Assembly: GCA_946541955.1 (NCBI GenBank)
Contig: CAMNJZ010000009.1
Span: 1 to 40,180, forward strand
Direction: 5' to 3'
Length of the DNA: 40,180 nt
Source: an uncultured Lachnospiraceae bacterium
Lineage (GTDB): Bacteria; Bacillota; Clostridia; Lachnospirales; Lachnospiraceae
Shown: positions 515 through 40,180 of the stretch, one piece after another
How the letters are laid out: every line of letters begins with the position of its first letter
Position numbering within the stretch: the first letter of the stretch is position 1
The notes under the pieces: model-generated
The model's input: the letters and a program-made list of their open reading frames with translations, nothing else
What the model was told of the DNA's origin: nothing
Database searches by the model: none
Program-made: the position numbers and the translations under genes

Positions 515-532
515 ATCAGCAAGGGGCAAAGT

Positions 533-1303: not shown

Positions 1304-1328
1304 AAATGGCAGAAGGGAGCATAACGAT

Positions 1329-3344: not shown

Positions 3345-3360
3345 AAGGGAGAGATGACAA

Positions 3361-24578: not shown

Positions 24579-25360
24579 GCTTCCTCCTCCAGCGTGGGGG
24601 CTTCGTCTTCCTCCTTTTTCCGGATGCTTTCTTCAATGGCCAGCTCCTGGTTGAGGGGCTCATAGATGATGAGCTCGGACAGGAAGATGGGGAACCAGAG
24701 GCCGATGAAGGGGATCAGGATCACGGTCCAGGGAGCGAAGAGGGCAATGACCAGGACGAAGAGGAGCTTCACCAGGGCGGCGCCCAGGACCCGCCACATG
24801 TATTTGGCAGTAAAGAGGATCCCGTTGCGGATGCTGACGGAGGCCGGCTGGGAGAAAAGGACCAGCTGGGGCCAGAGGAGCATGCTGACGAGGAGAAAGA
24901 CATAGAGGGAAATCACAAAAAAGAGGAGGGTGGTCAGGGTAAAGCTGCCCCCGCCCCAGAACATGATATAAGCCATAAATACATAGACGCCAAACACAAG
25001 GCCTGTCAGAGCACCGGGAAGGAGGGCCTCCTTCCAGTTCTGGGCAAGGCCTTTTTTGTAGCTTCTGCCCCATCTGCCCGGCGAATCCCGAAGGCCCCGC
25101 ATGATCATGTCATAGAGGGCTGCCAGGAAGGGACCGAAGATGAGGCCTCCCAGGATTGAAGCGGGCAGGAGGACCAGCAGGGAGGAGGAGAGGACGGAGA
25201 GGGTCACGCCGGCCAGAAGGGGCAGGCCCCCGATGGAGGTGGCGACGGAGGATTTGAACCAGGTCCCCGCGTAGAAGGAAAGGAGCTGCCGGTAGCGGTA
25301 AAAGCCGGTCATCCGCGTGGACTCATCATAGGAACTGTCATCCGCAAAAAACAAAGCCAT
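24575..25360 (-). CDS. Multi-pass membrane protein (DUF624/YesL-like layout), function unknown
   Basis: Several hydrophobic helices; stop overlaps the convergent SGNH gene stop. Confidence 0.7.
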   Translation of the reverse strand: MALFFADDSSYDESTRMTGFYRYRQLLSFYAGTWFKSSVATSIGGLPLLAGVTLSVLSSSLLVLLPASILGGLIFGPFLAALYDMIMRGLRDSPGRWGRSYKKGLAQNWKEALLPGALTGLVFGVYVFMAYIMFWGGGSFTLTTLLFFVISLYVFLLVSMLLWPQLVLFSQPASVSIRNGILFTAKYMWRVLGAALVKLLFVLVIALFAPWTVILIPFIGLWFPIFLSELIIYEPLNQELAIEESIRKKEEDEAPTLEEEA

Positions 25361-25363
25361 ACA

Positions 25364-25993
25364 TTACCTCCTGATCTCACTGTTATAATGGCAGGCCGAA
25401 AGAAAGTCCTCCAGGACCTGGTCCGGGTCTTCGCTGCACAGGTCCCTTTCTGAAAACTCCACGTTGATGGAGTAATTCCCGAAGACGGCAAAGGCGCTGG
25501 CGCCCCGGCTGTAGGGATTGGAATCGGAAAGGACCCTGTAATCCAGGACGGTATAGGTCATATCTGCGACGGTGACCTCCCTTTCCTCCAGGATCTCATA
25601 GGATTCCTTTTCCCGGTCCATCCAGTCCTTTATGGTGGAGGCGGGATCCTCCCCCTTCTTTTCGTCATTTCCGTAGACCAGCATATAGACCTGGGCCTCG
25701 TAGAGGTCCGTTTCCTTCCCTTCTTCATTGGTAAAGGGCTCCGGCTCTCCCATGGACCAGGTGGCGTAGAAGGTATCGCTTCCCGTCAGGACCACCGGAT
25801 TTTCCAGGGGGACCAGGCCGTGGCCCGGATCCTCCACGCCGACGACCCTGCCCAGGATGGTCCAGTCCTCCTGCCAGGCGTTCCCCTGGGTATCGGTACT
25901 GGGATAGGACTGGCAGGCGCAAAGGCCCAGGGAAAGGGAGAGGGCCGCCAGAAGGGCGGGGATCTTCCTGGATCTGACAATTCTTTCTTTCAT
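25364..25993 (-). CDS. Lipoprotein, unknown function
   Basis: Signal peptide with lipobox LSLGLCAC-QS. Confidence 0.8.
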   Translation of the reverse strand: MKERIVRSRKIPALLAALSLSLGLCACQSYPSTDTQGNAWQEDWTILGRVVGVEDPGHGLVPLENPVVLTGSDTFYATWSMGEPEPFTNEEGKETDLYEAQVYMLVYGNDEKKGEDPASTIKDWMDREKESYEILEEREVTVADMTYTVLDYRVLSDSNPYSRGASAFAVFGNYSINVEFSERDLCSEDPDQVLEDFLSACHYNSEIRR

Positions 25994-26033
25994 CTTTCTA
26001 TCTCCTTGACCTTATAGAACGGATGTCCCTGCT

Positions 26034-26768
26034 TCAGCTTCCTTTTGTCAGGACCTCCCAGAGGGCGTCACACCCTTCCTTATGCTTTACGGTCTTATCG
26101 GTCCAAAAGCCCCTTCTTGCCAGGAAGAGGGGACGAACCAGGTCATTGCCGGAGCCTTTTAGGGTCTGTCCGGCTGCCTGCTCTTCATAGGTTCCAAGGT
26201 CCATGGCGGCAAGGACAGGGGCGTCCTCCCAGGCTATGGCGTAGAGCCCGTCCTTTTCCCCTTCGGCCGGCAGGGTCCCGTCCGGATGGGCGAGGATCTG
26301 GTAATCCCGCTCAAAGCCCGCCGGGTCCTCCAGCAGGAAGAAATAGGACTCGCAGTCCTCCATATCCGCCATCAGGGCCGCTTCGGTGGCCGTATTGTAG
26401 GAGGCGTTCTCTCTGGCGGCTTCGCCGCCTTCTGTATTCTTTATATACTGGTGCAGGCTGGCGATCACCTGGCCGTCTCCGTTGAGATCCGCGCCGCAGG
26501 CCGCGAAAGCCTCTTCCAGAGCCGTCTGGGTCTGGGCCGGCAGGGGATAGGTCCCCACATAGGCGATCTGATAATCGGGGAAGGTCTTTCCGATGCCCAG
26601 GGTGCCGGCAGCGATCTCCCAGACGATCCAGGCGGCCGCCGCTCCTGCCAGCAGGTGGACTTTATGATAATAGAGCCAGTTCTTTACTTTGGCGCTGCCC
26701 TGGAGGGGCGGCGCTTCTTCTTTGGGCTTTTCGTCCTTTACCTGCCATTTGATATATTCACTTGCCAT
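26034..26768 (-). CDS. Single-TM membrane protein, unknown function
   Basis: Conserved-looking ORF with one TM (LLAGAAAAWIVWEIAAG); 5' end overlaps the lacI-type gene 3' end by 11 nt. Confidence 0.75.
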   Translation of the reverse strand: MASEYIKWQVKDEKPKEEAPPLQGSAKVKNWLYYHKVHLLAGAAAAWIVWEIAAGTLGIGKTFPDYQIAYVGTYPLPAQTQTALEEAFAACGADLNGDGQVIASLHQYIKNTEGGEAARENASYNTATEAALMADMEDCESYFFLLEDPAGFERDYQILAHPDGTLPAEGEKDGLYAIAWEDAPVLAAMDLGTYEEQAAGQTLKGSGNDLVRPLFLARRGFWTDKTVKHKEGCDALWEVLTKGS

Positions 26769-27813
26769 TGCTTCTTCCCTGTTCCCGGTCTTCGGTCCCG
26801 TAGATATAGTCCAGCTTCACAGCCTCTCTGGTGGTCCCGCCGGCCCGGTAGTGGACGGGAAGGCAGGTCAGGGTGGGAATCTGGCTCTTGTCGGAGGAGA
26901 GCAGGAGGGAGACGGCCGTTTCGGCCATGTCCTGCACCGGCTGGACGATGGAGGAAACGCAGGGCATCAGATAGTCTCCGAACATGTTGGTGCCGTCGAA
27001 GCCGATGACCTGGACCTCCTCGGGGACCCTGATCCCCTGTTCCTTGAGGATCTGGCAGACCACGTAGGCCATCTTGTCCGTATTGCAGAAGATGCCGTCG
27101 AAATCGGGCTTTCCGTCATGGATCCGTTCCCTGATGCTCTGCAGGAAGGGCCGGAAGGCCAGGGAATCGCTGCTGATGAGGGACTCAAAGGGAATGCCGT
27201 TGGACCGGCACCAGGATTCAAAACCGTACTGGCGCTTGTCGGGCTCGCCCGGAACGTCCGGGGCGATATTGAAGAACAGGAGCTTTGTGGCGCCCAGCTC
27301 TATGAGCTTTCTGGCTGCCAGGGTGCCTCCTGAATAGTTGTCGCAGGAAACGCAGGGAACCGCGTCTGAATAGAAGCGGTCGATGCTGACAAAGGGAAGC
27401 CCCGGGTCGATCCGCAGATCCGGATTATAGGTCAGGGCGATGATCCCGTCGACCTTGTTCTCGGTGACCATCTGGATGCATTTCTGCTCCATGTCCAGGC
27501 TGTACTGGGTGATGGCCAGCATCATGCGGTAGCCCCGCTCCAGCAGGGCCTTGTTGATGTAATTGGCCAGATCCCCGAAGAAGGGATGATCGGTCCCGGG
27601 ACAGATGAAGGCAACGGTCCGGGTCTGGTTGGTCTTCAGACCCCTGGCGTAGCGGTTGACCTTGTAGCCCAGCTTTCTGGCGGCTTCCTCTACCTTTATT
27701 TTATAGGACTCACTGACCTGAGCCCCGTTGAATACATTGGATACGGTCCCCAGAGAAACCCCGGCCTCCCTGGCGACATCCTTCATGGTGGGGGTGGAAC
27801 TTTTCTTGTTCAT
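26758..27813 (-). CDS. LacI-family transcriptional regulator
   Basis: N-terminal HTH MKDVAREAGVSLGTVSNVFNGAQVSESYKIKVEEAARKLGYKVNRYARGLK plus full-length sugar-binding core (FDGIFCNTDKMAY...QVIGFDGTNM). Confidence 0.96.
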   Translation of the reverse strand: MNKKSSTPTMKDVAREAGVSLGTVSNVFNGAQVSESYKIKVEEAARKLGYKVNRYARGLKTNQTRTVAFICPGTDHPFFGDLANYINKALLERGYRMMLAITQYSLDMEQKCIQMVTENKVDGIIALTYNPDLRIDPGLPFVSIDRFYSDAVPCVSCDNYSGGTLAARKLIELGATKLLFFNIAPDVPGEPDKRQYGFESWCRSNGIPFESLISSDSLAFRPFLQSIRERIHDGKPDFDGIFCNTDKMAYVVCQILKEQGIRVPEEVQVIGFDGTNMFGDYLMPCVSSIVQPVQDMAETAVSLLLSSDKSQIPTLTCLPVHYRAGGTTREAVKLDYIYGTEDREQGRSNGK

Positions 27814-27836
27814 GGCGGCCTCCTTATCTGGTATAT

Positions 27837-27865
27837 ATTATAGGTTTGATTTCATGAAAATTCAA
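27837..27865 (-). promoter_or_regulatory. Sigma-A-type promoter of the lacI-type gene (TTGAAT-N17-TATAAT on minus)
   Basis: -35 complement ATTCAA at 27860-27865; -10 complement ATTATA at 27837-27842; 17-bp spacer. Confidence 0.8.
27850..27859. promoter_or_regulatory. TTTCATGAAA palindrome inside the lacI promoter spacer (candidate autoregulatory site)
   Basis: Perfect 10-bp palindrome abutting the -35; second copy at 27873-27882. Confidence 0.55.
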
Positions 27866-27872
27866 TCTTTTA

Positions 27873-27882
27873 TTTCATGAAA
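27873..27882. promoter_or_regulatory. Second TTTCATGAAA palindrome, 23 bp centre-to-centre from the first
   Basis: Read directly; upstream of the lacI -35. Confidence 0.5.
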
Positions 27883-27960
27883 CGATACCAGGAAAATTAA
27901 CAAAAACGGATGGTTAAGTTTGTGTAAATCGTGGAAATGGCCTGTTTACAGGAAAAAATG

Positions 27961-27989
27961 TTGACATGAGAAGGTGGGAACCTTACAAT
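27961..27989 (+). promoter_or_regulatory. Promoter of sugar ABC transporter operon (TTGACA-N17-TACAAT)
   Basis: -35 at 27961-27966, -10 at 27984-27989, 17-bp spacer. Confidence 0.85.
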
Positions 27990-27995
27990 TATCTC

Positions 27996-28013
27996 AAATG
28001 AAACGTTTCATTT
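27996..28013. promoter_or_regulatory. LacI-family operator O1, 18-bp perfect palindrome AAATGAAACGTTTCATTT
   Basis: Perfect dyad with central CG at the predicted transcription start. Confidence 0.88.
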
Positions 28014-28060
28014 ATCCTGAATTGCCCAATACAGAGAAGGGCATTTTTTTAAAAAGTCAA

Positions 28061-28074
28061 ATGAAACGTTTCAT
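28061..28074. promoter_or_regulatory. LacI-family operator O2, 14-bp perfect palindrome ATGAAACGTTTCAT
   Basis: Same core as O1, centres 63 bp apart. Confidence 0.86.
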
Positions 28075-28113
28075 GTAACTGTTGGAGAGTTTCATATAAA
28101 AAAGGAGAGAGAT

Positions 28114-29046
28114 ATGAAATCAAAAGCAAAAACTGCCGCAGTGACGGTTCCCAAACCGCCGCTGGGCAAGAGGCTGAAGGACAACTGGCAGCTCTATCTG
28201 CTTCTCCTGATTCCGATCATCCTGACCTTCATCTACAAGTACATCCCTATGTACGGCATCCAGATCGCCTTCAGGGATTACAAGGCCAGCCGCGGAATTC
28301 TGGGCAGTAAATGGGTTGGCATGGAATGGTTCGAGCGCTTCTTTACCGCACCGACCTGTGCGCGTATGATCCGCAACACCGTTCTCCTGAGCTTTTTCAG
28401 CCTGCTCTGGAGCTTCCCGGTGCCGATCATTCTGTCCCTGTGCATCAACCAGCTTCGCTTTGCCAAGTACAAGAGGGTTGTCCAGACAGTTCTGTACGCA
28501 CCGCACTTCATTTCGACCATGGTCGTATGTGGTATGATCCGAATTTTCCTGAGCCCTTCAGGCGGTCTGATCAACCTGCTTCTCCACACCAGCATCGATT
28601 TCCTGACAGAATCCTCTGCATTCCGTACGATCTATATCGCGTCCGGAATCTGGCAGGACGCAGGCTGGGGCTGCATCATTTATCTGGCAACGCTTTCCGC
28701 AGTCGATACCAGCCTTTATGAGGCGGCCAAGGTCGACGGCGCATCGGTCTTCCAGAGAATCATGGCCATCGACGTTCCTGCGCTTCTGCCTATGGCGATC
28801 CTGAACCTGATCATGAGCGCAGGCTCTCTGATGAATGTCGGCTTCGAGAAGGTATGGCTTCTGCAGACAGATCTGAACAAGGCCACTTCCGACGTCATTG
28901 CCGTTTATGTCTACCAGCAGGGTATTGAAAACGCCAAGTATTCCTACTCGACGGCAGTCGGTCTTTTCAATACAGCGGTCAACATCATTCTTCTGATCAT
29001 TGTCAACCAGATCGCCAAGCGGGCGTCTGACGTAGACTTTGTATAA
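28114..29046 (+). CDS. Carbohydrate ABC transporter permease (LplB-like)
   Basis: Multi-TM with EAA-type loop YEAAKVDGASVFQRIMAIDVPALLP. Confidence 0.93.
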   Translation: MKSKAKTAAVTVPKPPLGKRLKDNWQLYLLLLIPIILTFIYKYIPMYGIQIAFRDYKASRGILGSKWVGMEWFERFFTAPTCARMIRNTVLLSFFSLLWSFPVPIILSLCINQLRFAKYKRVVQTVLYAPHFISTMVVCGMIRIFLSPSGGLINLLLHTSIDFLTESSAFRTIYIASGIWQDAGWGCIIYLATLSAVDTSLYEAAKVDGASVFQRIMAIDVPALLPMAILNLIMSAGSLMNVGFEKVWLLQTDLNKATSDVIAVYVYQQGIENAKYSYSTAVGLFNTAVNIILLIIVNQIAKRASDVDFV

Positions 29047-29058
29047 GGAGGTGCAGCT

Positions 29059-29958
29059 ATGGGAAAGAATTCAAAAACATCCGGCTTCTCCGAACGGACC
29101 AGCGACATCGTCCTGGTAGCCATCACCCTGATCGTCATGCTCCTGGTGGCATACCCTCTGTATTATGTCCTGGTGGCATCCTTCTCCAACCCCTATGATG
29201 TGTACGCCGGCAAGACCTTCCTTCTGCCCAGCGGCTTTACCCTGGACGGCTACAAGGCAGTCTTTGCAGACGCCAACATCTTTACCGGTTACCTCAACTC
29301 CATCAAGTACACCATCATCGGCACCATCTTTTCCGTGACCATGCTCTATATCACAGCATACCCTCTGTCCAGAAAAGAGCTGCCCGGCCGTAAGTTCTTC
29401 AGCCTTTTCTTCCTGCTGACCATGTATTTCGGCGGCGGTCTGATCCCCACCTACCTGGTCGTCAAGCAGACAGGTCTGATCAACAACATGTGGGCCCTGT
29501 TCCTGCCCGGCGGCGTGGCAGTCGGCAACATGATCATCGTCAGGAATTATTTCCAGAACTCCATCCCGCAGGAGCTGATCGAGGCTTCCGAGATCGACGG
29601 CTGCTCCAAGCTGCAGACCTTCTGGAACGTGATCATTCCCCTGTCCACTCCCATCATGGCGGTTATGGTGGTCTTCTCCATGGTCGCTTACTGGAACGAC
29701 TGGTTCACGGCTCTGATCTATCTGACCGGCGCTGAGAAGGCGCCCCTGCCCCTGGTCCTGAGAAACGTCCTGATCAAATCCAGCGCTTCCGCAGCCCAGG
29801 CCAGCACGATTTCCGGCGGTTATGCCGAGCTGAACAAGATCACGGAAATGATCAAGTTCTCCTCCATTATCGTCGCCGCAGCTCCCATGCTGATCGTCTA
29901 TCCCTTCGTTCAGAAGTACTTTGAGAAGGGCATGATGGCCGGCGCGGTCAAGGGCTGA
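29059..29958 (+). CDS. Carbohydrate ABC transporter permease (LplC/YtcP-like)
   Basis: Multi-TM with EAA loop IEASEIDGCSKLQTFWNVIIPLSTPIM. Confidence 0.93.
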   Translation: MGKNSKTSGFSERTSDIVLVAITLIVMLLVAYPLYYVLVASFSNPYDVYAGKTFLLPSGFTLDGYKAVFADANIFTGYLNSIKYTIIGTIFSVTMLYITAYPLSRKELPGRKFFSLFFLLTMYFGGGLIPTYLVVKQTGLINNMWALFLPGGVAVGNMIIVRNYFQNSIPQELIEASEIDGCSKLQTFWNVIIPLSTPIMAVMVVFSMVAYWNDWFTALIYLTGAEKAPLPLVLRNVLIKSSASAAQASTISGGYAELNKITEMIKFSSIIVAAAPMLIVYPFVQKYFEKGMMAGAVKG

Positions 29959-30012
29959 TTTCAGAAAGTTTGTACAGGTGTAATCAACACTTTTAAACAA
30001 AAGGAGGAAAGT

Positions 30013-31674
30013 ATGACAAAATTCAAAAGACTCACAGCGCTGGCACTGACTGGCGTCATGGCCCTTTCTCTGGCGGCCTGCGGCGGATCTTCCGGCGGCA
30101 GCTCCGAGGAAGAGAAGATCGGCAACACCGACCAGACCGAATTCGAGATCATGGGCGGCCAGTCCGCTCTGAGCCCGGGCTACAAGGACAATGAAGTCCT
30201 CAACAAGCTTCAGGAAGAAGCCGGCATCAAGATCACATGGAATACCATGAGCGATTCCCTGGCCGAGCAGGTCAACATCCACATCGCCGGCGGCGAGCTC
30301 CCGGACGCCTTCCAGGGCGTTGGCTTCTCCAACTATGAGCTGGCCAACTACGGCGCAGACGGCACCTTCATCGACCTGACTCCCTACATCACCGAGGAAG
30401 TCATGCCCAACCTGACCAAGATCCTGGATGAGTATCCCAGCATCCGTGCCGCCATTACCATGGACGACGGCAAGATCTACGGCCTTCCCTCCGCTGAGCA
30501 GATGGGTACCGCAGGTATCGGCAAGGAAGAGGATTATTCCATCTTTACCATCCCTCAGTTCTCCATGATCAACAAGGCATGGCTGGACGATCTGGGACTG
30601 GAAGTGCCCACCACCCTGGATGAACTGGAAGTCTGCCTCCAGGCCTTCAAGGACAACGATATGTCCGCCAAGTACTATGGCAACGATCCCGGTTCCACCA
30701 TTCCCATGTCCACAGGCTTTGACCAGTGGTGCTGGGGCCAGAACATCTTCTATGCAGGCTTCGGCTTCACCAACTGGATCAACGACGTCTGCAACGACCT
30801 GGTTCTGCAGCCCGACGGCAAGGTCAACTTCGTATGCGATGACGACGGCTACCGTGCAGCCATGGATTACTTCCATGATTGGTATGCAAAGGGCCTGATG
30901 GATATCGAGACCTTCTCCCAGGATGATACCCAGCTCATGTCCAAGTGCCAGCAGGGCTATGTCGGCGTTTCCACATGGTGGTACATCGAAGAGCTCATGG
31001 GCGAGTATGCAAAAGACTATGTATTCCTTCCTGTTCTTGCAGGTCCCGACGGAACCAAGAACGTGACAGTCCGTACAGGCGGCGGCACCAACTCCGGCCA
31101 GCTTTCCATCACAGAAGCCTGCGAGTCCCCTGCCAATCTGCTGAAGTTCTATGACATGTGGTATGACGGCGAGACCGTTATGCAGCTCCAGTATGGCCCC
31201 ATCGGCGTATTCTTCACCGGTCAGGATGAGAATGGCGTATGGAACTCCATTACCGAAGAAGAAGCCCAGGCGCAGTTCGGCAAGGGTGCCGGCGAGCTCA
31301 AGTCCACCTACGAAGTCGCAGGTCCCAAGCTGATCCTGTCCCACTACTACAACGATACCTTCAAGATGGAAGACAGAGCCGTCGAGAGACTGACAGACCT
31401 CTATGACTACTGGATGCCTCAGGTAGCCGATACCTCCACCTATCCCATCGACTGCGTCTTCACAGCAGACGAGCTGGAGACCATTGACCGTTATAAGACT
31501 GACTTCCAGGATACCGTTGCCGAGAACGAAGGCCTCTGGCTCAAGAACGGCGGCCCCACCGATGAGGAATGGGAAGCTTACAAGCAGAACCTCAACGACA
31601 CCTGCGGTATGGAAGAGCTTCTGAAGGTCTATCAGGATGCTTATGACCGTTATGCGGCTGCCCTTGCAGAATAA
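30013..31674 (+). CDS. Extracellular sugar-binding lipoprotein of the ABC transporter
   Basis: Lipobox LSLAACGG; large solute-binding protein directly after the permeases. Confidence 0.92.
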   Translation: MTKFKRLTALALTGVMALSLAACGGSSGGSSEEEKIGNTDQTEFEIMGGQSALSPGYKDNEVLNKLQEEAGIKITWNTMSDSLAEQVNIHIAGGELPDAFQGVGFSNYELANYGADGTFIDLTPYITEEVMPNLTKILDEYPSIRAAITMDDGKIYGLPSAEQMGTAGIGKEEDYSIFTIPQFSMINKAWLDDLGLEVPTTLDELEVCLQAFKDNDMSAKYYGNDPGSTIPMSTGFDQWCWGQNIFYAGFGFTNWINDVCNDLVLQPDGKVNFVCDDDGYRAAMDYFHDWYAKGLMDIETFSQDDTQLMSKCQQGYVGVSTWWYIEELMGEYAKDYVFLPVLAGPDGTKNVTVRTGGGTNSGQLSITEACESPANLLKFYDMWYDGETVMQLQYGPIGVFFTGQDENGVWNSITEEEAQAQFGKGAGELKSTYEVAGPKLILSHYYNDTFKMEDRAVERLTDLYDYWMPQVADTSTYPIDCVFTADELETIDRYKTDFQDTVAENEGLWLKNGGPTDEEWEAYKQNLNDTCGMEELLKVYQDAYDRYAAALAE

Positions 31675-31675
31675 A

Positions 31676-31704
31676 TTGACATCATAACAGCCAGGTCGTA
31701 TAAT
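31676..31704 (+). promoter_or_regulatory. Exact-consensus promoter TTGACA-N17-TATAAT between binding protein and GH32 gene
   Basis: -35 at 31676-31681, -10 at 31699-31704, spacer 17 bp. Confidence 0.87.
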
Positions 31705-31715
31705 GTGCATTGACT

Positions 31716-31748
31716 GCCGGAGGCACGGGTACGTGCCTCCGGCTTTTT
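31716..31748 (+). terminator. Intrinsic terminator-like hairpin, 12-bp perfect stem, 4-nt loop, T5
   Basis: GCCGGAGGCACG-GGTA-CGTGCCTCCGGC-TTTTT. Confidence 0.92.
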
Positions 31749-31790
31749 CAAAAGAATACTTTATCGAAGGAGCCAATAAGGACAGGAGAC

Positions 31791-33275
31791 ATGATCAGCA
31801 AGAGACTCAGACAGGCAAGAGCCTACGAACAGGAAGCAGAAAAACGAATCAATCCGGAGGACAGACCCTCCTTCCATCTTTCCCCCCGGTGCGGATGGCT
31901 GAATGATCCCAACGGCTTTTCCTACTATAAGGGGCAGTATCATCTCTTTTATCAGTATTATCCTTACAATTCTCATTGGGGACCCATGCACTGGGGCCAC
32001 GCTGTGAGCACAGACCTCCTTCACTGGACCTACCTTCCCTGTGCCATGGCCCCGGATTCCGGCGCCGACATCGGCGGCGTTTTCTCGGGCAGCGCGGTGG
32101 TCCTGGATGACGGGAGGCATCTCCTGATGTATACGGGCGTGGACGATGAGCTCAATACGCCCGGCAGCGACGCCTTCCAGGTCCAGTGTCTGGCTGTGGG
32201 AGACGGAGAAAACTACGACAAATATATGGGCAATCCCGTTCTTTCCGATTCGGATACGCCGGAAGGGTCTGATCCCCACGACTTCAGGGATCCCAAGATC
32301 TGGAGAAGGGACGACGGGACCTACAGGGCCGTGGCAGTCAGCCGGGCGGCCGACGGGACCGGCCAGGCCCTCCTCTTTGAAAGCCCCGACGCCTTCTCCT
32401 GGAAGTTCAAAAAGGTCTTTCTGAAGAACGACGGCGTCTACGGCCTCATGTGGGAGTGCCCGGATTTCTTTACCCTGGACGGCAAGGGAATCCTGATGCT
32501 GAGCCCCATGGACATGCTGCCGGAGGGCTTTGAATTCCACAACGGCAACGGGAATCTCTGCCTGATGGGCGCCTATGACGACAAGGAGGAGACCTTTGCC
32601 CCCGAGAAGGCCCAGGCCATCGATTCGGGCATTGACTTCTACGCCTGCCAGTCCATGCTTGCGCCCGACGGCAGAAGGATCATGATCGGCTGGATGCAGA
32701 ATCCCGACGGCTGCTCCTACCGGGGCGATTCCAAGCCCTGGTACGGCCAGATGACCCTGCCCAGAGAGCTTTTTATTAAGGACGGCAGGCTCTGGCAGCA
32801 GCCCATCCGGGAGCTGGACCAGATCCGGTCCGGCCGCGTTGCCTATGAAAACGTCCATGTGGACGGGGAATGCATGCTGGAAGGCACGGGGGGACGCAGG
32901 ATCGACCTGACGATCCGGATCAGGCCGGAGGATCTGGAGCATCCCTATCACAAGTTCATCCTCCGCTTTGCCATGAACGACAGCTTCTATACCCAGCTTT
33001 CCTTCCGCTTTAAGGAAAATGTCCTCAAGCTGGACCGGAAGTTCTCCGGGACCAGGCGGGCCGTCATCAACCAGAGACGGTGCCTTGTCCGCAGGGACGG
33101 GAAGGAATTAAAGCTCCGGGTCATTCTGGACCGCTACAGCGTGGAGGTCTTTATCAACGACGGCGAGCAGGTCATGACAGCTCTGCTCTATACGGACCAG
33201 GAGGCGGACCAGGTCATGTTCTACTCGGACGGCGCAGCCGTGATCGACGTGGAAAAATACGATCTTGTGGACTGA
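31791..33275 (+). CDS. GH32 beta-fructofuranosidase (sucrose/fructo-oligosaccharide hydrolase), no signal peptide
   Basis: GH32 motifs WLNDPNGF, FRDPKIW, WECPDFF; ATG at 31791 after GACAGGAGAC. Confidence 0.95.
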   Translation: MISKRLRQARAYEQEAEKRINPEDRPSFHLSPRCGWLNDPNGFSYYKGQYHLFYQYYPYNSHWGPMHWGHAVSTDLLHWTYLPCAMAPDSGADIGGVFSGSAVVLDDGRHLLMYTGVDDELNTPGSDAFQVQCLAVGDGENYDKYMGNPVLSDSDTPEGSDPHDFRDPKIWRRDDGTYRAVAVSRAADGTGQALLFESPDAFSWKFKKVFLKNDGVYGLMWECPDFFTLDGKGILMLSPMDMLPEGFEFHNGNGNLCLMGAYDDKEETFAPEKAQAIDSGIDFYACQSMLAPDGRRIMIGWMQNPDGCSYRGDSKPWYGQMTLPRELFIKDGRLWQQPIRELDQIRSGRVAYENVHVDGECMLEGTGGRRIDLTIRIRPEDLEHPYHKFILRFAMNDSFYTQLSFRFKENVLKLDRKFSGTRRAVINQRRCLVRRDGKELKLRVILDRYSVEVFINDGEQVMTALLYTDQEADQVMFYSDGAAVIDVEKYDLVD

Positions 33276-33307
33276 GGACCGTCTTCGGCTTCCCCGGCAG
33301 TTATTAT

Positions 33308-33346
33308 GGGATATGGAAGCAGGGCTTCCATATCCCTTTTCTTTTT
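33308..33346 (+). terminator. Intrinsic terminator of the GH32 gene
   Basis: GGGATATGGAAGC-AGG-GCTTCCATATCCC then TTTTCTTTTT. Confidence 0.95.
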
Positions 33347-33393
33347 CCGGGGGAATTTCCGAAAAGTAAACTGAATCCGTCCCGGAATATGAA

Positions 33394-33422
33394 TTGAGTT
33401 TACTGGCCAAGACGATTATAAT
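33394..33422 (+). promoter_or_regulatory. Promoter of the short LacI-type gene (TTGAGT-N17-TATAAT) overlapped by an inverted repeat
   Basis: -35 at 33394-33399, -10 at 33417-33422; near-perfect arms AGTAAACTGAAT (33365-33376) / ATTGAGTTTACT (33393-33404). Confidence 0.75.
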
Positions 33423-33490
33423 TACCATATCCCCTTTGGTGATATAATAGAAGCAGTCAGCATATGCCTGTGCAGACTGCAGGGAGGTAT

Positions 33491-34021
33491 ATGCTTATGA
33501 CAACTATGAAACAAATCGCAGAACTGGCTCAGTGCTCCAGGGCAACAGTCTCCCGTGTAATTGCAGGGTCTCCCCTGGTGAAAGAGAATACCCGGGTCCG
33601 GGTCCAGTACTGGCTCGATAAGACAGGCTTTCAGCCCAACCGGGCGGCCCAGGGCCTGATCGGAGGCCGGACGGCCCTGATCGGTCTGTGCCTTCCCAGT
33701 CTGACAGAGGACAATTGTGCGGCCTTTGTAGAGGCCTTTGAAGCGGAGACCAAAAAGAGGGGCTACGACCTCCTGCTGGGCGTATCCGGCAGAGATGAGA
33801 AGAGAGAGCGGGTCTTTCCCGCCATGCTCCTGTCCAGACGGGCGGACGGCTTTGCGGCGGTCGGCGTGGGAATCGGAGAGCAGATCCTGGAGAAAAGCCA
33901 GATCCCCGGTCTCTATCTGGACGCAGCGGATCCGGAGAAGGCAGCGGCCCTGGCGGACAGTCTGATCGACAAAATCCAGAACAGGGGCGAGGAGGATCCT
34001 GCAGAGGATACCTCCCTGTAA
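33491..34021 (+). CDS. Half-length LacI-type regulator (HTH plus part of sugar-binding core)
   Basis: MKQIAELAQCSRATVSRVIAGSPLVKENTRVRVQYWLDKTGFQPNRAAQGLIGGRTALIGLCLP; ends about half-way through the core. SD GGGAGGT upstream; start may be 33491 or 33497. Confidence 0.82.
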   Translation: MLMTTMKQIAELAQCSRATVSRVIAGSPLVKENTRVRVQYWLDKTGFQPNRAAQGLIGGRTALIGLCLPSLTEDNCAAFVEAFEAETKKRGYDLLLGVSGRDEKRERVFPAMLLSRRADGFAAVGVGIGEQILEKSQIPGLYLDAADPEKAAALADSLIDKIQNRGEEDPAEDTSL

Positions 34022-34034
34022 AGCGAGGCTGGCA

Positions 34035-34595
34035 ATGCGCGGTGAAAAACTCTTTATGAAGTATCAGTTCGACCTCTATACCAGGCTGCTGATTTTTATG
34101 ATGCTTTTTGTCATAGGCGGGATCAGCGGCTGGCTCTATGAGATGGGCTTTTACCGGATCAACTTCGGCTATTTTGTAAAACGGGGCCATGGCTTTGGTC
34201 CATGGCTTCCCATCTATGGCTTCGGCTGCATCCTGATCCTGCTCTGTTCCTATTCCTTCCGAAAGAGTCCGGTCCTGGTCGTTCTGATCTGCGCTCTGGT
34301 GACGGGCCTTCTGGAATTTGCCACGGGCTATGTCCTGTATCACTATCATGGCGGCCTGCGGCTCTGGGACTATAATACCGAGATCTGGAACTGGGGCAAC
34401 ATAGGCGGCTATGTCTGCTTCCGGTCCGTGGCGGTCTTCGCCCTGGCGGGGGCCCTGGTGGTCTACTTTGTATTCCCCTGGATCTGCTTCGTGGCAAAGC
34501 GCTTTCACGGCCCCATCTTCAGCCTTCTCGCCCTGGGTCCTTTTCTGGTCTGCGCAGCAGACATAGTATACGGATATTTTTTAAAAGGACTGTGA
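34035..34595 (+). CDS. CmpB-like (putative ABC transporter permease family) membrane protein
   Basis: Multi-TM with GGISGWLYEM and GGYVCFRSVAVFALAG; start could be 34035 or 34056. Confidence 0.7.
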   Translation: MRGEKLFMKYQFDLYTRLLIFMMLFVIGGISGWLYEMGFYRINFGYFVKRGHGFGPWLPIYGFGCILILLCSYSFRKSPVLVVLICALVTGLLEFATGYVLYHYHGGLRLWDYNTEIWNWGNIGGYVCFRSVAVFALAGALVVYFVFPWICFVAKRFHGPIFSLLALGPFLVCAADIVYGYFLKGL

Positions 34596-34631
34596 GAAAG
34601 CCGAATATATGATAAAATAAGAAAAACGGAT

Positions 34632-34653
34632 AAAAAGCGGCCAGGACGGCCGC
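34632..34653 (-). terminator. Orphan minus-strand terminator-like hairpin
   Basis: GCGGCC-AGGAC-GGCCGC preceded by AAAAA on plus (TTTTT after the stem on minus). Confidence 0.5.
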
Positions 34654-34775
34654 AGCAGCAATAGATTTCAGCTGGTAATTAAGAAAAATTCATACGAAGC
34701 CGGTGAAGGAGCGCCCGCGGCTTTGGATCCTGCTGCAGGGAATCCCCTGACCGGCGCTCGGGAATGTGAGGAGTT

Positions 34776-35075
34776 ATGTTAAATATCAAAAAAACACTGA
34801 GTGAAGGCAGCGCAGAAGTGGTCCTGGAGGGAAGACTGGATACGACCACGGCGCCTGCTCTGGAAAGCGAACTCAAGGCCTTTCTTCCTTCTGTGACAGA
34901 CCTTGTTTTTGACTTTGAAAAGCTGGAGTATATTTCCTCCGCAGGGCTTCGGATTCTGCTTTCCTCACAGAAGACCATGAACAGACAGGGCAGCATGAAG
35001 CTGATTCATGTGGCGCCGGAAATCAATGAGATCTTCGAAGTCACAGGCTTCTCTGATATTCTGACCATCGAATAA
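34776..35075 (+). CDS. STAS-domain anti-sigma factor antagonist
   Basis: GRLDTTTAPALESEL...DFEKLEYISSAGLRILL; SD GAGGAG. Confidence 0.93.
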   Translation: MLNIKKTLSEGSAEVVLEGRLDTTTAPALESELKAFLPSVTDLVFDFEKLEYISSAGLRILLSSQKTMNRQGSMKLIHVAPEINEIFEVTGFSDILTIE

Positions 35076-35107
35076 TAGAGCTGTCAGTGCATCCAGTGGG
35101 GCAGAAG

Positions 35108-35527
35108 ATGAAAAGTTTAGAGATCAAAGCAGTTACCGATAACCTGGATACGGTACTGGACTTTATCAACGAGCAGCTCGAGACCATGGGCTGCACCATG
35201 AAGAACCAGATCCAGATCGACATGGCCGTAGAGGAACTGTTTGTAAACATTGCGCACTATGCTTATAAAGGCGGCGTGGGAAAGGCCAGGATCCTGACAG
35301 GGGAAGACACCGGATCCCGTGAGCCCGGTATCCTCAGGATCACTCTGATCGACTGGGGCGTTCCCTTTAATCCGCTGGAGAAAAAGGACCCTGACATTTC
35401 TCTTTCCGTTGAGGACAGGGAGATAGGCGGTCTTGGGATTTTTATGGCCAAAAAAGTCATGGACCACATGGACTACTCCTACGAGGAAGGCCGGAATATC
35501 CTGACCATGACCAAAAAGGTCTGCTGA
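35108..35527 (+). CDS. RsbW-like anti-sigma factor / serine kinase (HATPase_c_2)
   Basis: N-box DMAVEELFVNIAHYAY; LIDWGVPFNP; EIGGLGIFMAKKVMDHMDY. Confidence 0.92.
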   Translation: MKSLEIKAVTDNLDTVLDFINEQLETMGCTMKNQIQIDMAVEELFVNIAHYAYKGGVGKARILTGEDTGSREPGILRITLIDWGVPFNPLEKKDPDISLSVEDREIGGLGIFMAKKVMDHMDYSYEEGRNILTMTKKVC

Positions 35528-35541
35528 GAAAGAAGACAGAA

Positions 35542-35841
35542 ATGCTGGTTATCAAGATAGAAAAAGACGGAGATACGCTTACGGTCATGCCCAGGGGGAG
35601 ACTGGATCAGAGCGCGGCGTCCATGCTGGAAGAGGAAATCAGAAAGAATCTGGAAGGCACAGGGCTGCTGGTCCTGGATCTGAAGGATCTTTCCTATCTG
35701 TCTTCGGCCGGCCTTCGGGTCTTTATTGCACTGAAAAAGATCATGGACAGGCAGGGAAAACTGCGTTTTGTCAATGTAGGCGGCGCGGTGGCGGAGGTCT
35801 TCGATCTCACAGGCCTGAGTGTCCTGCTCATGGAAGACTGA
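35542..35841 (+). CDS. Second STAS-domain anti-sigma factor antagonist
   Basis: GRLDQSAASMLEEEI...DLKDLSYLSSAGLRVFI. Confidence 0.93.
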   Translation: MLVIKIEKDGDTLTVMPRGRLDQSAASMLEEEIRKNLEGTGLLVLDLKDLSYLSSAGLRVFIALKKIMDRQGKLRFVNVGGAVAEVFDLTGLSVLLMED

Positions 35842-35953
35842 GCATAAGAAAAATTTATAAGAAGGTCAAAGAGTATAAAAAATAAATAGCGTGGTTTACC
35901 CCCAGTCAACTAATGTGATACCCGAATCCACCTGGTTAGTAGCATTCTTCTGT

Positions 35954-35965
35954 AGACTCTAGTCT
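35954..35965. promoter_or_regulatory. Palindrome AGACT-CT-AGTCT upstream of XRE gene (candidate operator)
   Basis: Perfect 5-bp arms about 20 bp before the start codon. Confidence 0.4.
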
Positions 35966-35983
35966 CAAGAGAGGTAAATTAAT

Positions 35984-36328
35984 ATGTTGGATTTTGGAAT
36001 CAGACTGAAAGAGCTCAGGATCAAAAAAGGCCTGACACAGGAACAGCTCAGCGAACTGCTGGGCGTGACAAAATCGGTGGTCTCTTATTATGAGAGCAAT
36101 AAGAGAGCGCCCTCTCCGGAGGTCCTGGTGGCGATCTCCCATATTTTCCATGTCTCTGCGGACTATCTGCTGGATCTGGATGACGGGAATACGATCAACA
36201 TCGGCGGACTGGACCGGAAGGATGCCGAGGTCGTACGCAGACTGGTCGCCTATATGCGGGAAGTCCAGGACGAGGCAGAGGGAAAGAAAAGATTTCCCAA
36301 TAAGGAAGAATCGGATTTATCCGAGTGA
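35984..36328 (+). CDS. XRE/Cro-CI family transcriptional regulator
   Basis: LKELRIKKGLTQEQLSELLGVTKSVVSYYESNKRAPSPEVLVAISHIFHVSADYLLDLDD. Confidence 0.95.
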   Translation: MLDFGIRLKELRIKKGLTQEQLSELLGVTKSVVSYYESNKRAPSPEVLVAISHIFHVSADYLLDLDDGNTINIGGLDRKDAEVVRRLVAYMREVQDEAEGKKRFPNKEESDLSE

Positions 36329-36353
36329 ACCATGGGTTCCTATGCAGGCAGAG

Positions 36354-36385
36354 GGGCACAGCTTCAGAGGAAGCTGTGCCCTTTC
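36354..36385 (+). terminator. Intrinsic terminator of the XRE gene
   Basis: GGGCACAGCTTC-AGAG-GAAGCTGTGCCC then TTT. Confidence 0.85.
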
Positions 36386-36389
36386 TCTG

Positions 36390-37118
36390 TCATTTGGGCC
36401 TTGCGGCGGCGTTGGCCCTGGCAGCGTCCTCTGCCGAATCATCCAGGGGGGAGAGGGCGCAGAGGGAAGGATCCCGTCTCTGCAGGGCCGTCAGGATCAG
36501 GAAATCCGCGATCTTCGGATTCTTGGGAAGAAGGGGGCCGTGGAGATAGGTGCCGATGGCGTTCTGGTAGAGGATCCCTTCGGTATGGTCTCTGCCGTTG
36601 TTGCCGCTGCCGCTAAGGACCCTGCCCAGGGGCCGGCCTCCTGTCAGAAAGGTCCTTCCGGAATGGTTCTCAAAGCCGGTGACAGAGCCGAAGGCCTCTG
36701 TCTCAATGGTAATGTTGCCCACAAGGCGCCTGTCCCCCGCCAGGGTCCTGGCAGGAAAGGCGCCGATGCCCCGGATCATCTGGCCGCTTTCCGTTACAAA
36801 GCCCTCTCCAAAGAGCTGGTAGAGGCCGCAGATCATAAGGGCGGGGCATCCCTCCTCCACAAGGGCGCGGAGATAGTCTCCCCGAAGGAGCAGGTCTTCC
36901 TCCACCCGGGCCTGGCCGGAGTCCTGGCCGCCCCCGCCAAAGACCAGGTCCACCCGGTCCGGAAAGGGGTCTCCCATCTCCAGGGGCAGGACCCGGACCG
37001 GGATATCCCGCCATTTGCAGCGGCGAACAAGGGCAAGGACATTGCCGTGGTCTCCGTAGAGATTCATTTCTCTGGGATAAAGATGAAGGATGGTCAGCGG
37101 TTCATTTGCAGGGATCAC
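36390..37118 (-). CDS. gatD: Lipid II isoglutaminyl synthase, glutamine amidotransferase subunit GatD
   Basis: LVFGGGGQDSGQ, ALMICGLYQLFG (nucleophile Cys), GFENHSGRT, GTYLHGPLLPKNP; adjacent to murT. Confidence 0.93.
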   Translation of the reverse strand: MIPANEPLTILHLYPREMNLYGDHGNVLALVRRCKWRDIPVRVLPLEMGDPFPDRVDLVFGGGGQDSGQARVEEDLLLRGDYLRALVEEGCPALMICGLYQLFGEGFVTESGQMIRGIGAFPARTLAGDRRLVGNITIETEAFGSVTGFENHSGRTFLTGGRPLGRVLSGSGNNGRDHTEGILYQNAIGTYLHGPLLPKNPKIADFLILTALQRRDPSLCALSPLDDSAEDAARANAAARPK

Positions 37119-38362
37119 AGAAGACTCCTTCCTGTCAGCTGCCTGCGGATCTCCAGCATGGCAGTATAGGTGGCGAAGATCTGACGGGGGCCTGTGCCCT
37201 CCAGAAAGGCCGCCAGGGCCTCTTTCAGATCTGTGTTTACATGTTGGACCGGGACCTGGTCATATTTGAGACGCAGGGCCATTTCCGGGGCCCGGGTGCC
37301 GGAAACGGTATGGACGCCCTCCAGCTTTGAGAAGTCCACGTTCCAGAGCCAGGAGATATCCCTGCCGTCGGCGTCGTAGTCATTGATGACGATCATGACA
37401 GGGTCCTTTCCCCTGCCGAAGGAGAAAAGGCTCTGGCGGAAGGCGGAGGGATTCTTGACCAGAAGGAGGCGGATTCTGGTCTCCCCCACTGTCAGGACCT
37501 CCCCCCTCCCAAAGGCGGAGGTGACCCCGGACAGGGACCGGAGAAGGGCCTCCGGGGAGGCCTCCGGCAGGATCTTTTGGCAGAGGGCCAGGGCGCCGGC
37601 CCCGTTGAAGGCGTTGTAGGCCCCCTCCAGGGAAAGGGTACAGGGAAAGACCCTTTCCCCGATCCGGTAGAGGGCCCTTTCGCCCTCTTCGCTGCTTTCT
37701 GTCTCTTCCAGGATGACGTCTGCAGGAGGCGTCTCGCCGCCCTCCTTTGGCAGGGAGGCGGTCAGGAGGTCCTCGTCGGAGGGAAAGAGGGCCTGCAGGG
37801 CCCCGGAGAGCCCGTAAAAGGAAGACTTTTCTCTGGAGAGGCCTCTGACCAGGGGATCCTCCCGGTTCAGGACCACGGCCTTTTCGGCCGCGCGGGCGGT
37901 CTGTCCCAGAAGGGCCGCCGTATGGTCGAGCTCACAGTAGCGGTCCAGCTGGTCCCGCTGCACGTTGAGGATCAGGGCATAATCGATGGAGGCTGCCTGG
38001 AGGAAGCGGACGCTGTGGGCCTCGTCCAGCTCCAGCACGGCGATATCCGCATCCAGGCGTCCGTCCAGGCGGACCTCCGAAAGCAGGGCGGAGAGGATCC
38101 CGCGGACAAAGTTGCTGCCGGTCCTGTTGGTGAAGACCCGCAGGCCCTGGTCCTGCAGGATCTGTGCCACCATTCTGGTGGTGGTGGTCTTGCCGTTGGT
38201 GCCAAGGACGACCGCCGTGCCAAGGGGGAGGGATGAGAGGACATCCCGCAGAAGACGGGGATCGGTTTTTTCTACGACAAGGCCCGGGAAGGCGGAGCCG
38301 CCGCCGCGCGCTCTGGCGATCTTTAAAAGGAGCCTGCCAAGGACAATACTGGGTCGGATCAT
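37115..38362 (-). CDS. murT: Lipid II isoglutaminyl synthase, Mur ligase-like subunit MurT
   Basis: VVLGTNGKTTTTRMVAQIL; VLNREDPL; C-terminal MurT domain LLLVKNPSAFRQSL...VINDYDADGRDISWLWNVDF. Start at 38362 with AAAGGA upstream. Confidence 0.93.
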   Translation of the reverse strand: MIRPSIVLGRLLLKIARARGGGSAFPGLVVEKTDPRLLRDVLSSLPLGTAVVLGTNGKTTTTRMVAQILQDQGLRVFTNRTGSNFVRGILSALLSEVRLDGRLDADIAVLELDEAHSVRFLQAASIDYALILNVQRDQLDRYCELDHTAALLGQTARAAEKAVVLNREDPLVRGLSREKSSFYGLSGALQALFPSDEDLLTASLPKEGGETPPADVILEETESSEEGERALYRIGERVFPCTLSLEGAYNAFNGAGALALCQKILPEASPEALLRSLSGVTSAFGRGEVLTVGETRIRLLLVKNPSAFRQSLFSFGRGKDPVMIVINDYDADGRDISWLWNVDFSKLEGVHTVSGTRAPEMALRLKYDQVPVQHVNTDLKEALAAFLEGTGPRQIFATYTAMLEIRRQLTGRSLL

Positions 38363-38393
38363 GGAATTCCTTTCTGCTTTCTTACGCACATAT

Positions 38394-38443
38394 AAAAAAG
38401 GTGACAGAGGCACCGGTTCCTGCCGGGACGCCTTTGTCACCTT
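38394..38443 (-). terminator. Terminator-like hairpin in the murT 5' leader
   Basis: On minus: AAGGTGACA-A-AGGC-GTC-CCGG-CAGGAA-CCGG-T-GCCT-C-TGTCACCTT then T-run (TTTTTT). Confidence 0.82.
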
Positions 38444-38455
38444 ATCTGGTTTTAT

Positions 38456-38484
38456 AGCATACGCTCTTTTGGGGAAAAAGTAAA
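38456..38484 (-). promoter_or_regulatory. Candidate murT-gatD promoter (TTTACT-N17-TATGCT on minus)
   Basis: -35 complement AGTAAA at 38479-38484, -10 complement AGCATA at 38456-38461, spacer 17 bp. Confidence 0.6.
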
Positions 38485-38496
38485 TCCTGCCTGCCA

Positions 38497-38521
38497 TATA
38501 TTTGGTCCGCTATATTTGGTC
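38497..38521. repeat. Direct repeat TATATTTGGTC x2 with 14-bp period in the murT / carbohydrate-binding gene divergent region
   Basis: Copies at 38497-38507 and 38511-38521; the second runs into GGTCTG-ATG-CAGACC. Confidence 0.75.
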
Positions 38522-38710
38522 TGATGCAGACCGATTTTTGTGAAATCATGCAAAGAGCAGATTTTTTTAAAAACCTTTCTTTTTAAGTTTCACTTAAGGA
38601 TTGTGTTTTAAGCTGTACCTGTCAAAGAGAAAAGGACAGGAGAAAGCACTGGGAAGAAAGCCTTTTGGCAGGCTTCTCCTGCACAGCCTATAGAAAGAGA
38701 GGAAAATACA

Positions 38711-40174
38711 ATGAAGAAAAAATATGCAGCAAAAGTCATTGCAGCGGCAATGGTCATGACGCTTACCATGTCCATGGCAGGATGTGCCATGGCGGCATCC
38801 TCTGCAGGGGATGCAGAGACAAAGACACAGGCCCAGGCGGAGCCCGCACAGGAAGCGGGCACAGATCTGATCGAAACGGCCGCCGGGGAGGAATCCGGCG
38901 CAGCAGCCTCCCTTTCCGATTATTTTACGGACAGGGATCTGGAGCAGACCGCTGACCTGTCCGGCGCCGTTACCTATGCACTGACGGACGGCCAGGACAT
39001 TTCCATCACCAAGGAGGGCGTCTACGTTCTGCAGGGCACCGCCAGGGACGTAACGGTCACCGTGGACGCCGATCAGGAAGCCAAGGTCCAGCTGGTCCTG
39101 GACGGGGCAGATGTGACCAACACGGATTTCCCGGTCATTTATGTAAAGAGCGCCGATAAGGTCTTTGTCACGACGACAGAGTCTGAAAATACCCTTACCG
39201 TCACAGGAAATTTCTCCGCAGACGGAGATACCAATACCGATGCCGTCATCTTCTCCAGGGACGACCTGGTCCTGAACGGGATGGGAAGCCTTAAGGTCAC
39301 CTCTTCGGAAAACGGGATCACCAGCAAGGATGACCTGAAGATCACCGGCGGCAGCCTTACCGTGGAATCCGGAAAGGACGCCCTGGAAGCCAACGACGGG
39401 ATCTATGTGGCGGATGGCAGCATCACCATCAACTCTGCCAAGGACGGTCTCCACGCCGAGAAGGATGACGACACCACAGTGGGACAGATCTATATCGCGG
39501 ACGGCAGCTTTGTGATCCAGGCCCAGGATGACGCCATCCAGGGCACCACGACCGTGACCATCGCAGGCGGCAGCTTTACCCTGCAGGCGGCGGAAGCCGT
39601 GGAGGGCACCTCTGTGGAGATCGCCGGCGGGACCCTGGACATTCAGGCCAGCGACGACGGCATCAACGCCTCCTCCAAATCCACTTCCGTGCCCACCAGG
39701 ATCGTCATTGACGGCGGGACCATCAATATCACCATGGGCAGCGGCGATACGGACGCGGTGGATTCCAACGGAGATCTGTATATAAACGGCGGAACGGTCA
39801 ACATCACAGCCCAGTCGGCCTTTGACTTCGACGGCGAGGGCCAGCTGAACGGCGGGACTGTTACGGTCAACGGCAGCCAGCTGACTCAGCTGACAAACGC
39901 CATGATGGGCGGCGGCAGGATGGGCGGCCAGGGCTTCCGCGGACAGGATGGCAACATGCCTGGCAATATGCCTGGCAATATGCCTGGCAACATGCCTGAA
40001 GACTCCCAGAGCCAGGATGGCAATATGCCTGGCACTGTGCCTGAAGGCTCCCAGGGCCAGGAGGGCACTATGCCTGGCGAGGGCTTCCGGGGCGGCCAGA
40101 GGCCGGGCCGCGGCGGCATGCGGGGCACAGACCAGGCGCAGCAGGAGACCCGGGAAGAGGGCACATGGTTCTGA
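38711..40174 (+). CDS. Carbohydrate-binding lipoprotein (Cthe_2159/DUF4353-like beta-helix) with Met/Pro/Gly-rich C-terminus
   Basis: Lipobox MSMAGCAM; repeated beta-solenoid pattern (GGSLTVESGKDALEANDGIYVADGSITINSAKDGLHAEKD...GGTVNITAQSAFDFDG). Confidence 0.85.
   Translation: MKKKYAAKVIAAAMVMTLTMSMAGCAMAASSAGDAETKTQAQAEPAQEAGTDLIETAAGEESGAAASLSDYFTDRDLEQTADLSGAVTYALTDGQDISITKEGVYVLQGTARDVTVTVDADQEAKVQLVLDGADVTNTDFPVIYVKSADKVFVTTTESENTLTVTGNFSADGDTNTDAVIFSRDDLVLNGMGSLKVTSSENGITSKDDLKITGGSLTVESGKDALEANDGIYVADGSITINSAKDGLHAEKDDDTTVGQIYIADGSFVIQAQDDAIQGTTTVTIAGGSFTLQAAEAVEGTSVEIAGGTLDIQASDDGINASSKSTSVPTRIVIDGGTINITMGSGDTDAVDSNGDLYINGGTVNITAQSAFDFDGEGQLNGGTVTVNGSQLTQLTNAMMGGGRMGGQGFRGQDGNMPGNMPGNMPGNMPEDSQSQDGNMPGTVPEGSQGQEGTMPGEGFRGGQRPGRGGMRGTDQAQQETREEGTWF
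39953..40000 (+). repeat. 12-bp tandem repeat AAYATGCCTGGC (NMPG) x4, last degenerate
   Basis: AACATGCCTGGC AATATGCCTGGC AATATGCCTGGC AACATGCCTGAA. Confidence 0.9.
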
Positions 40175-40180
40175 CCGGAC

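What the first reader, a model, noticed from the sequence alone, without database searches (positions are those of the whole stretch)
31676..31748. Exact-consensus promoter firing straight into a strong intrinsic terminator ahead of GH32
TTGACA-N17-TATAAT (31676-31704) begins 1 nt after the binding-protein stop codon. Its predicted start (about 31711) lies ~5 nt before a perfect 12-bp stem, GGTA loop and T5. Either the hairpin terminates both read-through and new transcripts, giving an abundant ~35-40-nt RNA, or it acts as a 5' stabilising cap on GH32 mRNA. No TGAAACGTTTCA operator is present, so GH32 may be uncoupled from the LacI control of its transporter.
Basis: partly seen in the sequence, partly recalled or inferred. 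Interest (0 to 1): 0.68.

Follow-up and report, generated by a model that had tools for sequence, protein, structure and literature searches.

The report
Strong promoter aimed into a terminator
In a gut-type clostridial bacterium a textbook-strong gene start signal sits only a few bases before a stop-transcription hairpin, ahead of a fructan- or sucrose-digesting enzyme gene; the layout is real and kept in two sister species, and it most likely throttles the enzyme's supply while giving off a tiny RNA, as in a known E. coli case.

Summary
TTGACA-N17-TATAAT (31676-31704) starts 1 nt after the stop codon of an ABC-importer solute-binding protein (SBP). It is followed 11 nt later by a 12-bp stem with GGTA loop and T5 (31716-31748), then the GH32 gene with no second promoter. 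It is not chance: such consensus promoters are rare in this genome (12 in 2.24 Mb), and the recognisable ones drive tRNA, rpmF and greA genes. In 436 kb, no other of 87 strong terminators has a promoter just upstream.

The promoter hexamers, stem and T5 are 39-40/41 identical in two sister species, where four-fold sites are 59-71% identical. The loop and spacer have changed length.

The hairpin itself is not special. SBP-GH32 junctions in related bacteria often carry one, with or without a promoter, which matches the known "internal terminator after SBP" rule of Clostridia.

Best reading (inferred): one hairpin serves two inputs. It is the internal terminator of the LacI-controlled transporter operon, and also a promoter-proximal attenuator for an operator-less constitutive promoter. 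The outputs are low basal GH32 mRNA plus a ~40-nt RNA, like E. coli greA/GraL. Complete uncoupling of GH32 from LacI is not shown. A dedicated sRNA function is possible but untested. No RNA data were available.

The parts
27961..27989 (+). Transporter promoter TTGACA-N17-TACAAT (11/12), with operator-like TGAAACGTTTCA at 27999-28010 and 28062-28073
   Evidence: TGAAACGTTTCA or one-base variants also found upstream of the transporter genes in the two sister species
26758..27813 (-). LacI-family regulator, divergent from the transporter
   Evidence: Pfam LacI and Peripla_BP
28114..29958 (+). two ABC importer permease genes (28114-29046 and 29059-29958)
   Evidence: Pfam BPD_transp_1
30013..31674 (+). 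ABC importer solute-binding protein (SBP), last gene of the transporter operon
   Evidence: lipoprotein-like N-terminus, position after the permeases, weak TIGR03850 match; no Pfam match
31676..31704 (+). exact-consensus sigma-A-type promoter TTGACA-N17-TATAAT
   Evidence: both hexamers identical in G019 and G020 with a 16-nt spacer
31709..31713 (+). predicted transcription start window (inferred)
   Evidence: 5-9 nt after the -10 hexamer; not measured
31716..31748 (+). intrinsic terminator: 12-bp stem, GGTA loop, T5
   Evidence: pairing kept with left-arm changes and a 6-nt loop in G019 and G020
31767..31774 (+). conserved AAGGAGCC, Shine-Dalgarno-like, 16 nt before ATG; a second AGGAG lies at 31784-31788
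   Evidence: identical in the three species; AAAGGAGC also precedes GH32 in L130 and L147
31791..33275 (+). GH32 glycoside hydrolase (sucrose-6-phosphate hydrolase / beta-fructosidase family)
   Evidence: Pfam Glyco_hydro_32N and 32C, TIGR01322 just under cut-off
33308..33336 (+). terminator at the 3' end of GH32; here the order is the usual one, with the next promoter (33394-33422) after it

Best explanation
One hairpin between the SBP gene and the GH32 gene handles two streams of RNA polymerase. (1) It is the internal terminator of the LacI-controlled transporter operon, so permease/SBP transcription stops there most of the time and only a fraction reads into GH32. (2) It is also a promoter-proximal attenuator: a consensus promoter without an operator, placed between the SBP stop codon and the hairpin, fires constitutively, and most new transcripts end at about +36 to +40, releasing a hairpin RNA of that size. 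The rest read through as GH32 mRNA with the hairpin near its 5' end, where it should also slow 5' decay. The result is a low, steady supply of GH32 topped up when LacI is released. Shown here: sequence, conservation, absence of an operator and absence of a second promoter. Inferred: promoter activity, start point, termination efficiency, RNA abundance, 5' protection.
For: Exact consensus promoter and terminator in the right order and spacing. Conserved in both nearest relatives: 39-40/41 identical over hexamers, stem and T5 against 59-71% at four-fold sites, and 46-52% in the stretch after T5. The loop changes from 4 to 6 nt while pairing is kept, which fits an RNA hairpin better than a DNA operator. 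The same strength class of promoter serves tRNA, rpmF and greA in this genome. No promoter-like site between the terminator and the ATG. Hairpins recur in orthologous and paralogous SBP-GH32 junctions, several with no promoter. In Clostridia, hairpins after SBP genes are internal terminators of 21-96% efficiency (PMC9045158). In E. coli the greA promoters feed a terminator giving 37-59-nt RNAs with about one third read-through (PMC6829880). The stem starts 41 nt after the SBP stop codon, beyond the ~27-30 nt within which ribosomes block a terminator in E. coli (PMC4824070).
Against: No transcript data exist here. The three species are one close clade, so conservation rests on few independent changes. 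A perfect 12-bp stem with T5 may terminate nearly completely, leaving too little GH32 mRNA from this promoter to matter. Most related SBP-GH32 junctions lack the promoter, so it is not needed for the system in general.
Confidence: 0.6

Rival explanations
1. Dedicated small-RNA gene: the ~40-nt hairpin RNA is the selected product (a GraL-like trans-acting RNA) and GH32 is served mainly by operon read-through.
For: Very strong promoter with terminator 3-7 nt after the start; the right arm CGTGCCTCCGGC-TTTTT is identical in all three species while the left arm changes; E. coli GraL acts in trans (PMC6829880).
Against: Almost no unpaired sequence for target pairing; the 5' tail is only 3-8 nt; no copies outside this locus; limited to one small clade; no Rfam match at the element. 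A terminator under selection would also keep one arm.
Confidence: 0.13
2. Plain GH32 promoter with a 5' stabilising hairpin: the hairpin terminates poorly this close to the start and mainly protects GH32 mRNA from 5' exonuclease or RppH attack.
For: Hairpin within 3-8 nt of the predicted 5' end; 5' stem-loops stabilise mRNAs (papA, cited in PMC5927463); promoter-linked early sequences can alter termination (recalled, not tested).
Against: The T5 is identical in all three species and directly abuts the stem; a stabiliser needs no U-tract. GraL shows termination works at 37-59 nt.
Confidence: 0.15
3. The hairpin is only the terminator of the SBP operon and the promoter is a weak or chance sequence; GH32 lives on operon read-through.
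For: Hairpins without a promoter occur at many SBP-GH32 junctions.
Against: Both hexamers are exact and identical in three species although the spacer has drifted in sequence and length; expectation 0.02 per window.
Confidence: 0.08
4. DNA palindrome acting as an operator overlapping +4 to +34 for an unknown repressor.
For: Perfect inverted repeat just downstream of the start.
Against: The loop changes from 4 to 6 nt and the left arm changes to G-U pairs, which breaks DNA symmetry but keeps RNA pairing; followed by T5; does not resemble the TGAAACGTTTCA sites.
Confidence: 0.03

Closest known systems
Internal transcription terminators downstream of SBP genes in ABC importer operons of Clostridia (PMC9045158)
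   Same: GC-rich stem-loop right after an SBP gene in a clostridial sugar-importer operon, with long stem and short U-tract; downstream gene partly insulated.
   Different: In that work the downstream genes are the translocator genes; here SBP is the last transporter gene and GH32 follows. Here a consensus promoter lies between the SBP stop and the hairpin, so the same terminator also meets newly started transcripts.
E. coli greA leader / GraL (PMC6829880)
   Same: Strong promoter, intrinsic terminator in the first ~50 nt, short RNAs of 37-59 nt, partial read-through into the gene.
   Different: Different gene; a 3-8-nt tail before the stem instead of about 18 nt; the stem also ends an upstream operon; no trans target or feedback shown.
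5' terminator attenuators in general (PMC2965389)
   Same: Terminator between promoter and start codon.
   Different: Classical attenuators form an antiterminator upstream; there is no room for one here (3-8 nt before the stem), so it would be a fixed-ratio rather than a switchable device.

Membership tests
Clostridial SBP internal terminator | stem-loop immediately downstream of an SBP gene in an ABC importer cluster | tested here: met
   stem starts 41 nt after the SBP stop
Clostridial SBP internal terminator | a gene of the same operon continues downstream on the same strand | tested here: met
   GH32 directly follows; SBP-GH32 synteny in many relatives
Clostridial SBP internal terminator | partial termination in vivo | not testable with these tools
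   needs Northern blot or Term-seq
GraL-like promoter-proximal terminator RNA | promoter whose start lies within tens of nt upstream of an intrinsic terminator in the leader of the downstream gene | tested here: met
   conserved in two relatives
GraL-like promoter-proximal terminator RNA | short terminated RNAs plus read-through mRNA observed | not testable with these tools
   no RNA data
GraL-like promoter-proximal terminator RNA | located in the greA leader | tested here: not met
   gene is GH32; this genome's greA has an exact-consensus promoter without a comparable terminator (L049)
Riboswitch / T-box / protein-binding attenuator | leader room for an antiterminator upstream of the terminator, or a known aptamer | tested here: not met
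   3-8 nt before the stem; no relevant Rfam match
LacI operon member under TGAAACGTTTCA | own operator at the GH32 promoter | tested here: not met
   none within 2 mismatches near 31676-31791; none found by an exact TGAAACG scan at GH32 in G019/G020 either

The most novel reading that the evidence does not exclude
The locus encodes a dedicated, abundant ~40-nt hairpin RNA, conserved in this clade, that acts beyond GH32 (in trans or as a decoy), with the transporter operon's internal terminator co-opted as its 3' end.
Probability: 0.12. Interest if true: 0.6.

Novelty: new variant of a known kind. Interest (0 to 1): 0.36.

Why it matters
If right, a single terminator sets two ratios at once (transporter to hydrolase, and basal to full-length transcript), which is a compact way to keep a constitutive trickle of a sugar hydrolase beside an inducible importer. 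It also gives a clean natural test of how well an intrinsic terminator works when it ends only about 40 nt from the start. It refines, rather than overturns, the known rule of internal terminators after SBP genes.

Tried and rejected
Rfam on 27500-34000: nothing relevant at the element; the two weak microRNA matches at 33289-33355 fall on the GH32 3' terminator hairpin. Alternative pairing of GGCUUUUU with AAGGAGCC as a switch: predicted for the window but not for the two relatives, and AAAGGAGC is better explained as an old Shine-Dalgarno site. LacI operator or CcpA cre-like site at the GH32 promoter: no operator within 2 mismatches; cre only checked by eye. Repeat-family origin of the hairpin: only one copy per genome. 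A wider ortholog set with the same promoter: 80 GH32 loci from GTDB genomes and 62 genomes of the genus gave only the two sister species; L005/L197 has TATAAT 13 nt before its hairpin but only a 3/6 -35 at 17-nt spacing. In-frame TTG at 31710 running into GH32 considered as an alternative start and rejected: no ribosome site upstream on the predicted transcript and the codons run through the terminator stem.

Full report
WHAT IS THERE. The SBP stop codon ends at 31674. TTGACA (31676-31681), a 17-nt spacer and TATAAT (31699-31704) follow, then 11 nt, then GCCGGAGGCACG-GGTA-CGTGCCTCCGGC-TTTTT (31716-31748), then 42 nt to the GH32 ATG at 31791. The consensus scan ranks this as the only 12/12 promoter in 25000-40180 and lists the hairpin as a terminator with 12 pairs, 10 of them G-C. 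The RNA hairpin folds at -28.4 kcal/mol, z -7.3. No promoter-like site lies between the terminator and the ATG. The next transcription unit shows the usual order: GH32 terminator 33308-33336, then a promoter at 33394-33422.

NOT CHANCE. An exact consensus promoter is expected 0.02 times in the window. The genome (2.24 Mb) has 12 with 16-18-nt spacing, against 1 for the reversed pattern. From their downstream sequences several are tRNA genes, one is rpmF and one greA, so this is the class of strong housekeeping promoters (gene names read from the sequence by me). Only the GH32 one runs straight into a terminator. In 436 kb of the genome I found 87 strong terminator-like hairpins; this is the only one with a promoter of at least 9/12 matches 2-20 nt upstream, and 0.04 such pairs are expected by chance for promoters of at least 11/12.

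CONSERVATION. Two of the other 61 genomes held for the genus carry the same layout: G019 (L002, L163, L191) and G020 (L003, L164, L190), with GH32 86-87% identical and the whole neighbourhood syntenic. Both hexamers are exact; the spacer is 16 instead of 17 nt and has drifted in sequence. The right arm and T5 are identical; the left arm has changes that keep pairing (A-U to G-U, C-G to U-G); the loop is 6 instead of 4 nt. Hexamers, stem and T5 agree at 39-40 of 41 positions, against 59-71% at four-fold degenerate sites of the flanking genes and 46-52% in the rest of the intergenic stretch after T5 (binomial p between 1e-4 and 1e-8 depending on the background chosen). Length changes in loop and spacer with kept pairing fit a promoter plus an RNA hairpin, not a DNA operator.

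THE HAIRPIN IS OLDER THAN THE PROMOTER (inference). SBP-GH32 adjacency is widespread in Lachnospiraceae. Some junctions are 20-50 nt with no hairpin, as in plain operons; many others have a GC-rich hairpin. In the genus, 8 of 10 orthologous junctions have one, and distant paralogous SBP-GH32 pairs have their own, some with T-runs and no room for a promoter before them, e.g. L199. This matches a published rule: in Clostridia, stem-loops after SBP genes are internal terminators with efficiencies of 21-96% (PMC9045158). A consensus promoter upstream of the hairpin appears only in the window's species and its two sisters.

HOW IT MOST LIKELY WORKS. The LacI-family regulator (26758-27813) and the two TGAAACGTTTCA sites by the transporter promoter (27999, 28062) mark the inducible input. 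The hairpin stops most of that stream after the SBP gene; its stem begins 41 nt after the stop codon, outside the zone where a terminating ribosome blocks hairpin folding in E. coli (PMC4824070). The second input is the operator-less consensus promoter, whose transcripts meet the same hairpin at once. The nearest precedent is the E. coli greA leader: two promoters, a terminator within 60 nt, RNAs of 37-59 nt (GraL), and about one third read-through (PMC6829880). By analogy the window should give a ~36-40-nt RNA and a minority of GH32 mRNA that carries the hairpin at its 5' end. Because only 3-8 nt precede the stem, there is no room for an antiterminator, so I expect a fixed ratio rather than a switch. 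Promoter activity, start, termination efficiency and RNA amount are inferred; nothing here measures RNA.

Sequence and coordinates are right. 'Terminates both streams' is the best-supported reading; '5' stabilising cap' is compatible with it for read-through molecules. 'Uncoupled from LacI' is only half right: the promoter has no operator within 2 mismatches in the window, and an exact TGAAACG scan finds none at GH32 in the sisters, but operon read-through through hairpins must supply GH32 in relatives whose junctions hold no promoter, so partial coupling is likely.

NOVELTY AND INTEREST. Each half is known; their sharing of one hairpin at an SBP-hydrolase junction, conserved in a clade, is a new variant. 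The most novel open reading, a dedicated trans-acting ~40-nt RNA, is not excluded but has little unpaired sequence to work with.

Noticed in passing
33464-34021 (+): A half-length LacI-family protein (185 aa; DNA-binding domain, no full sensor domain) follows GH32 with its own promoter TTGAGT-N17-TATAAT. A similarly short 177-aa version with the same promoter hexamers sits at the same place in G019 (L163:9621-10154), so the short form looks conserved rather than a broken gene.
   Followed up: partly
27999-28010 and 28062-28073: Two exact TGAAACGTTTCA sites flank the leader of the transporter operon; exact or one-base variants also lie upstream of the transporter in both sister species, and a variant (TGAAACGTTTTA) lies upstream of a GH32 gene in G048 (L165:6860).
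   Followed up: partly
L197:1442-1681 (G058; same junction as L005): The SBP-GH32 junction has TATAAT 13 nt before a hairpin with a T-rich tail, but no good -35; possibly the same layout in a degraded or different form.
   Followed up: no
L049 (own genome, contig C23): greA of this genome also has an exact-consensus promoter with a small hairpin (GCCACGAAGTGGC) at the predicted start, but no terminator like GraL.
   Followed up: no
4059-13346 (+): A 3095-aa surface-type protein with many repeated Ig-like stretches and a C-terminal membrane anchor, in a cluster with FHA-, PP2C- and Ser/Thr-kinase-like genes (134-4038); names are from reading the sequence, not searched.
   Followed up: no
33289-33355 (+): Weak Rfam matches to microRNA families fall on the GH32 3' terminator hairpin and are clearly spurious.
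   Followed up: yes
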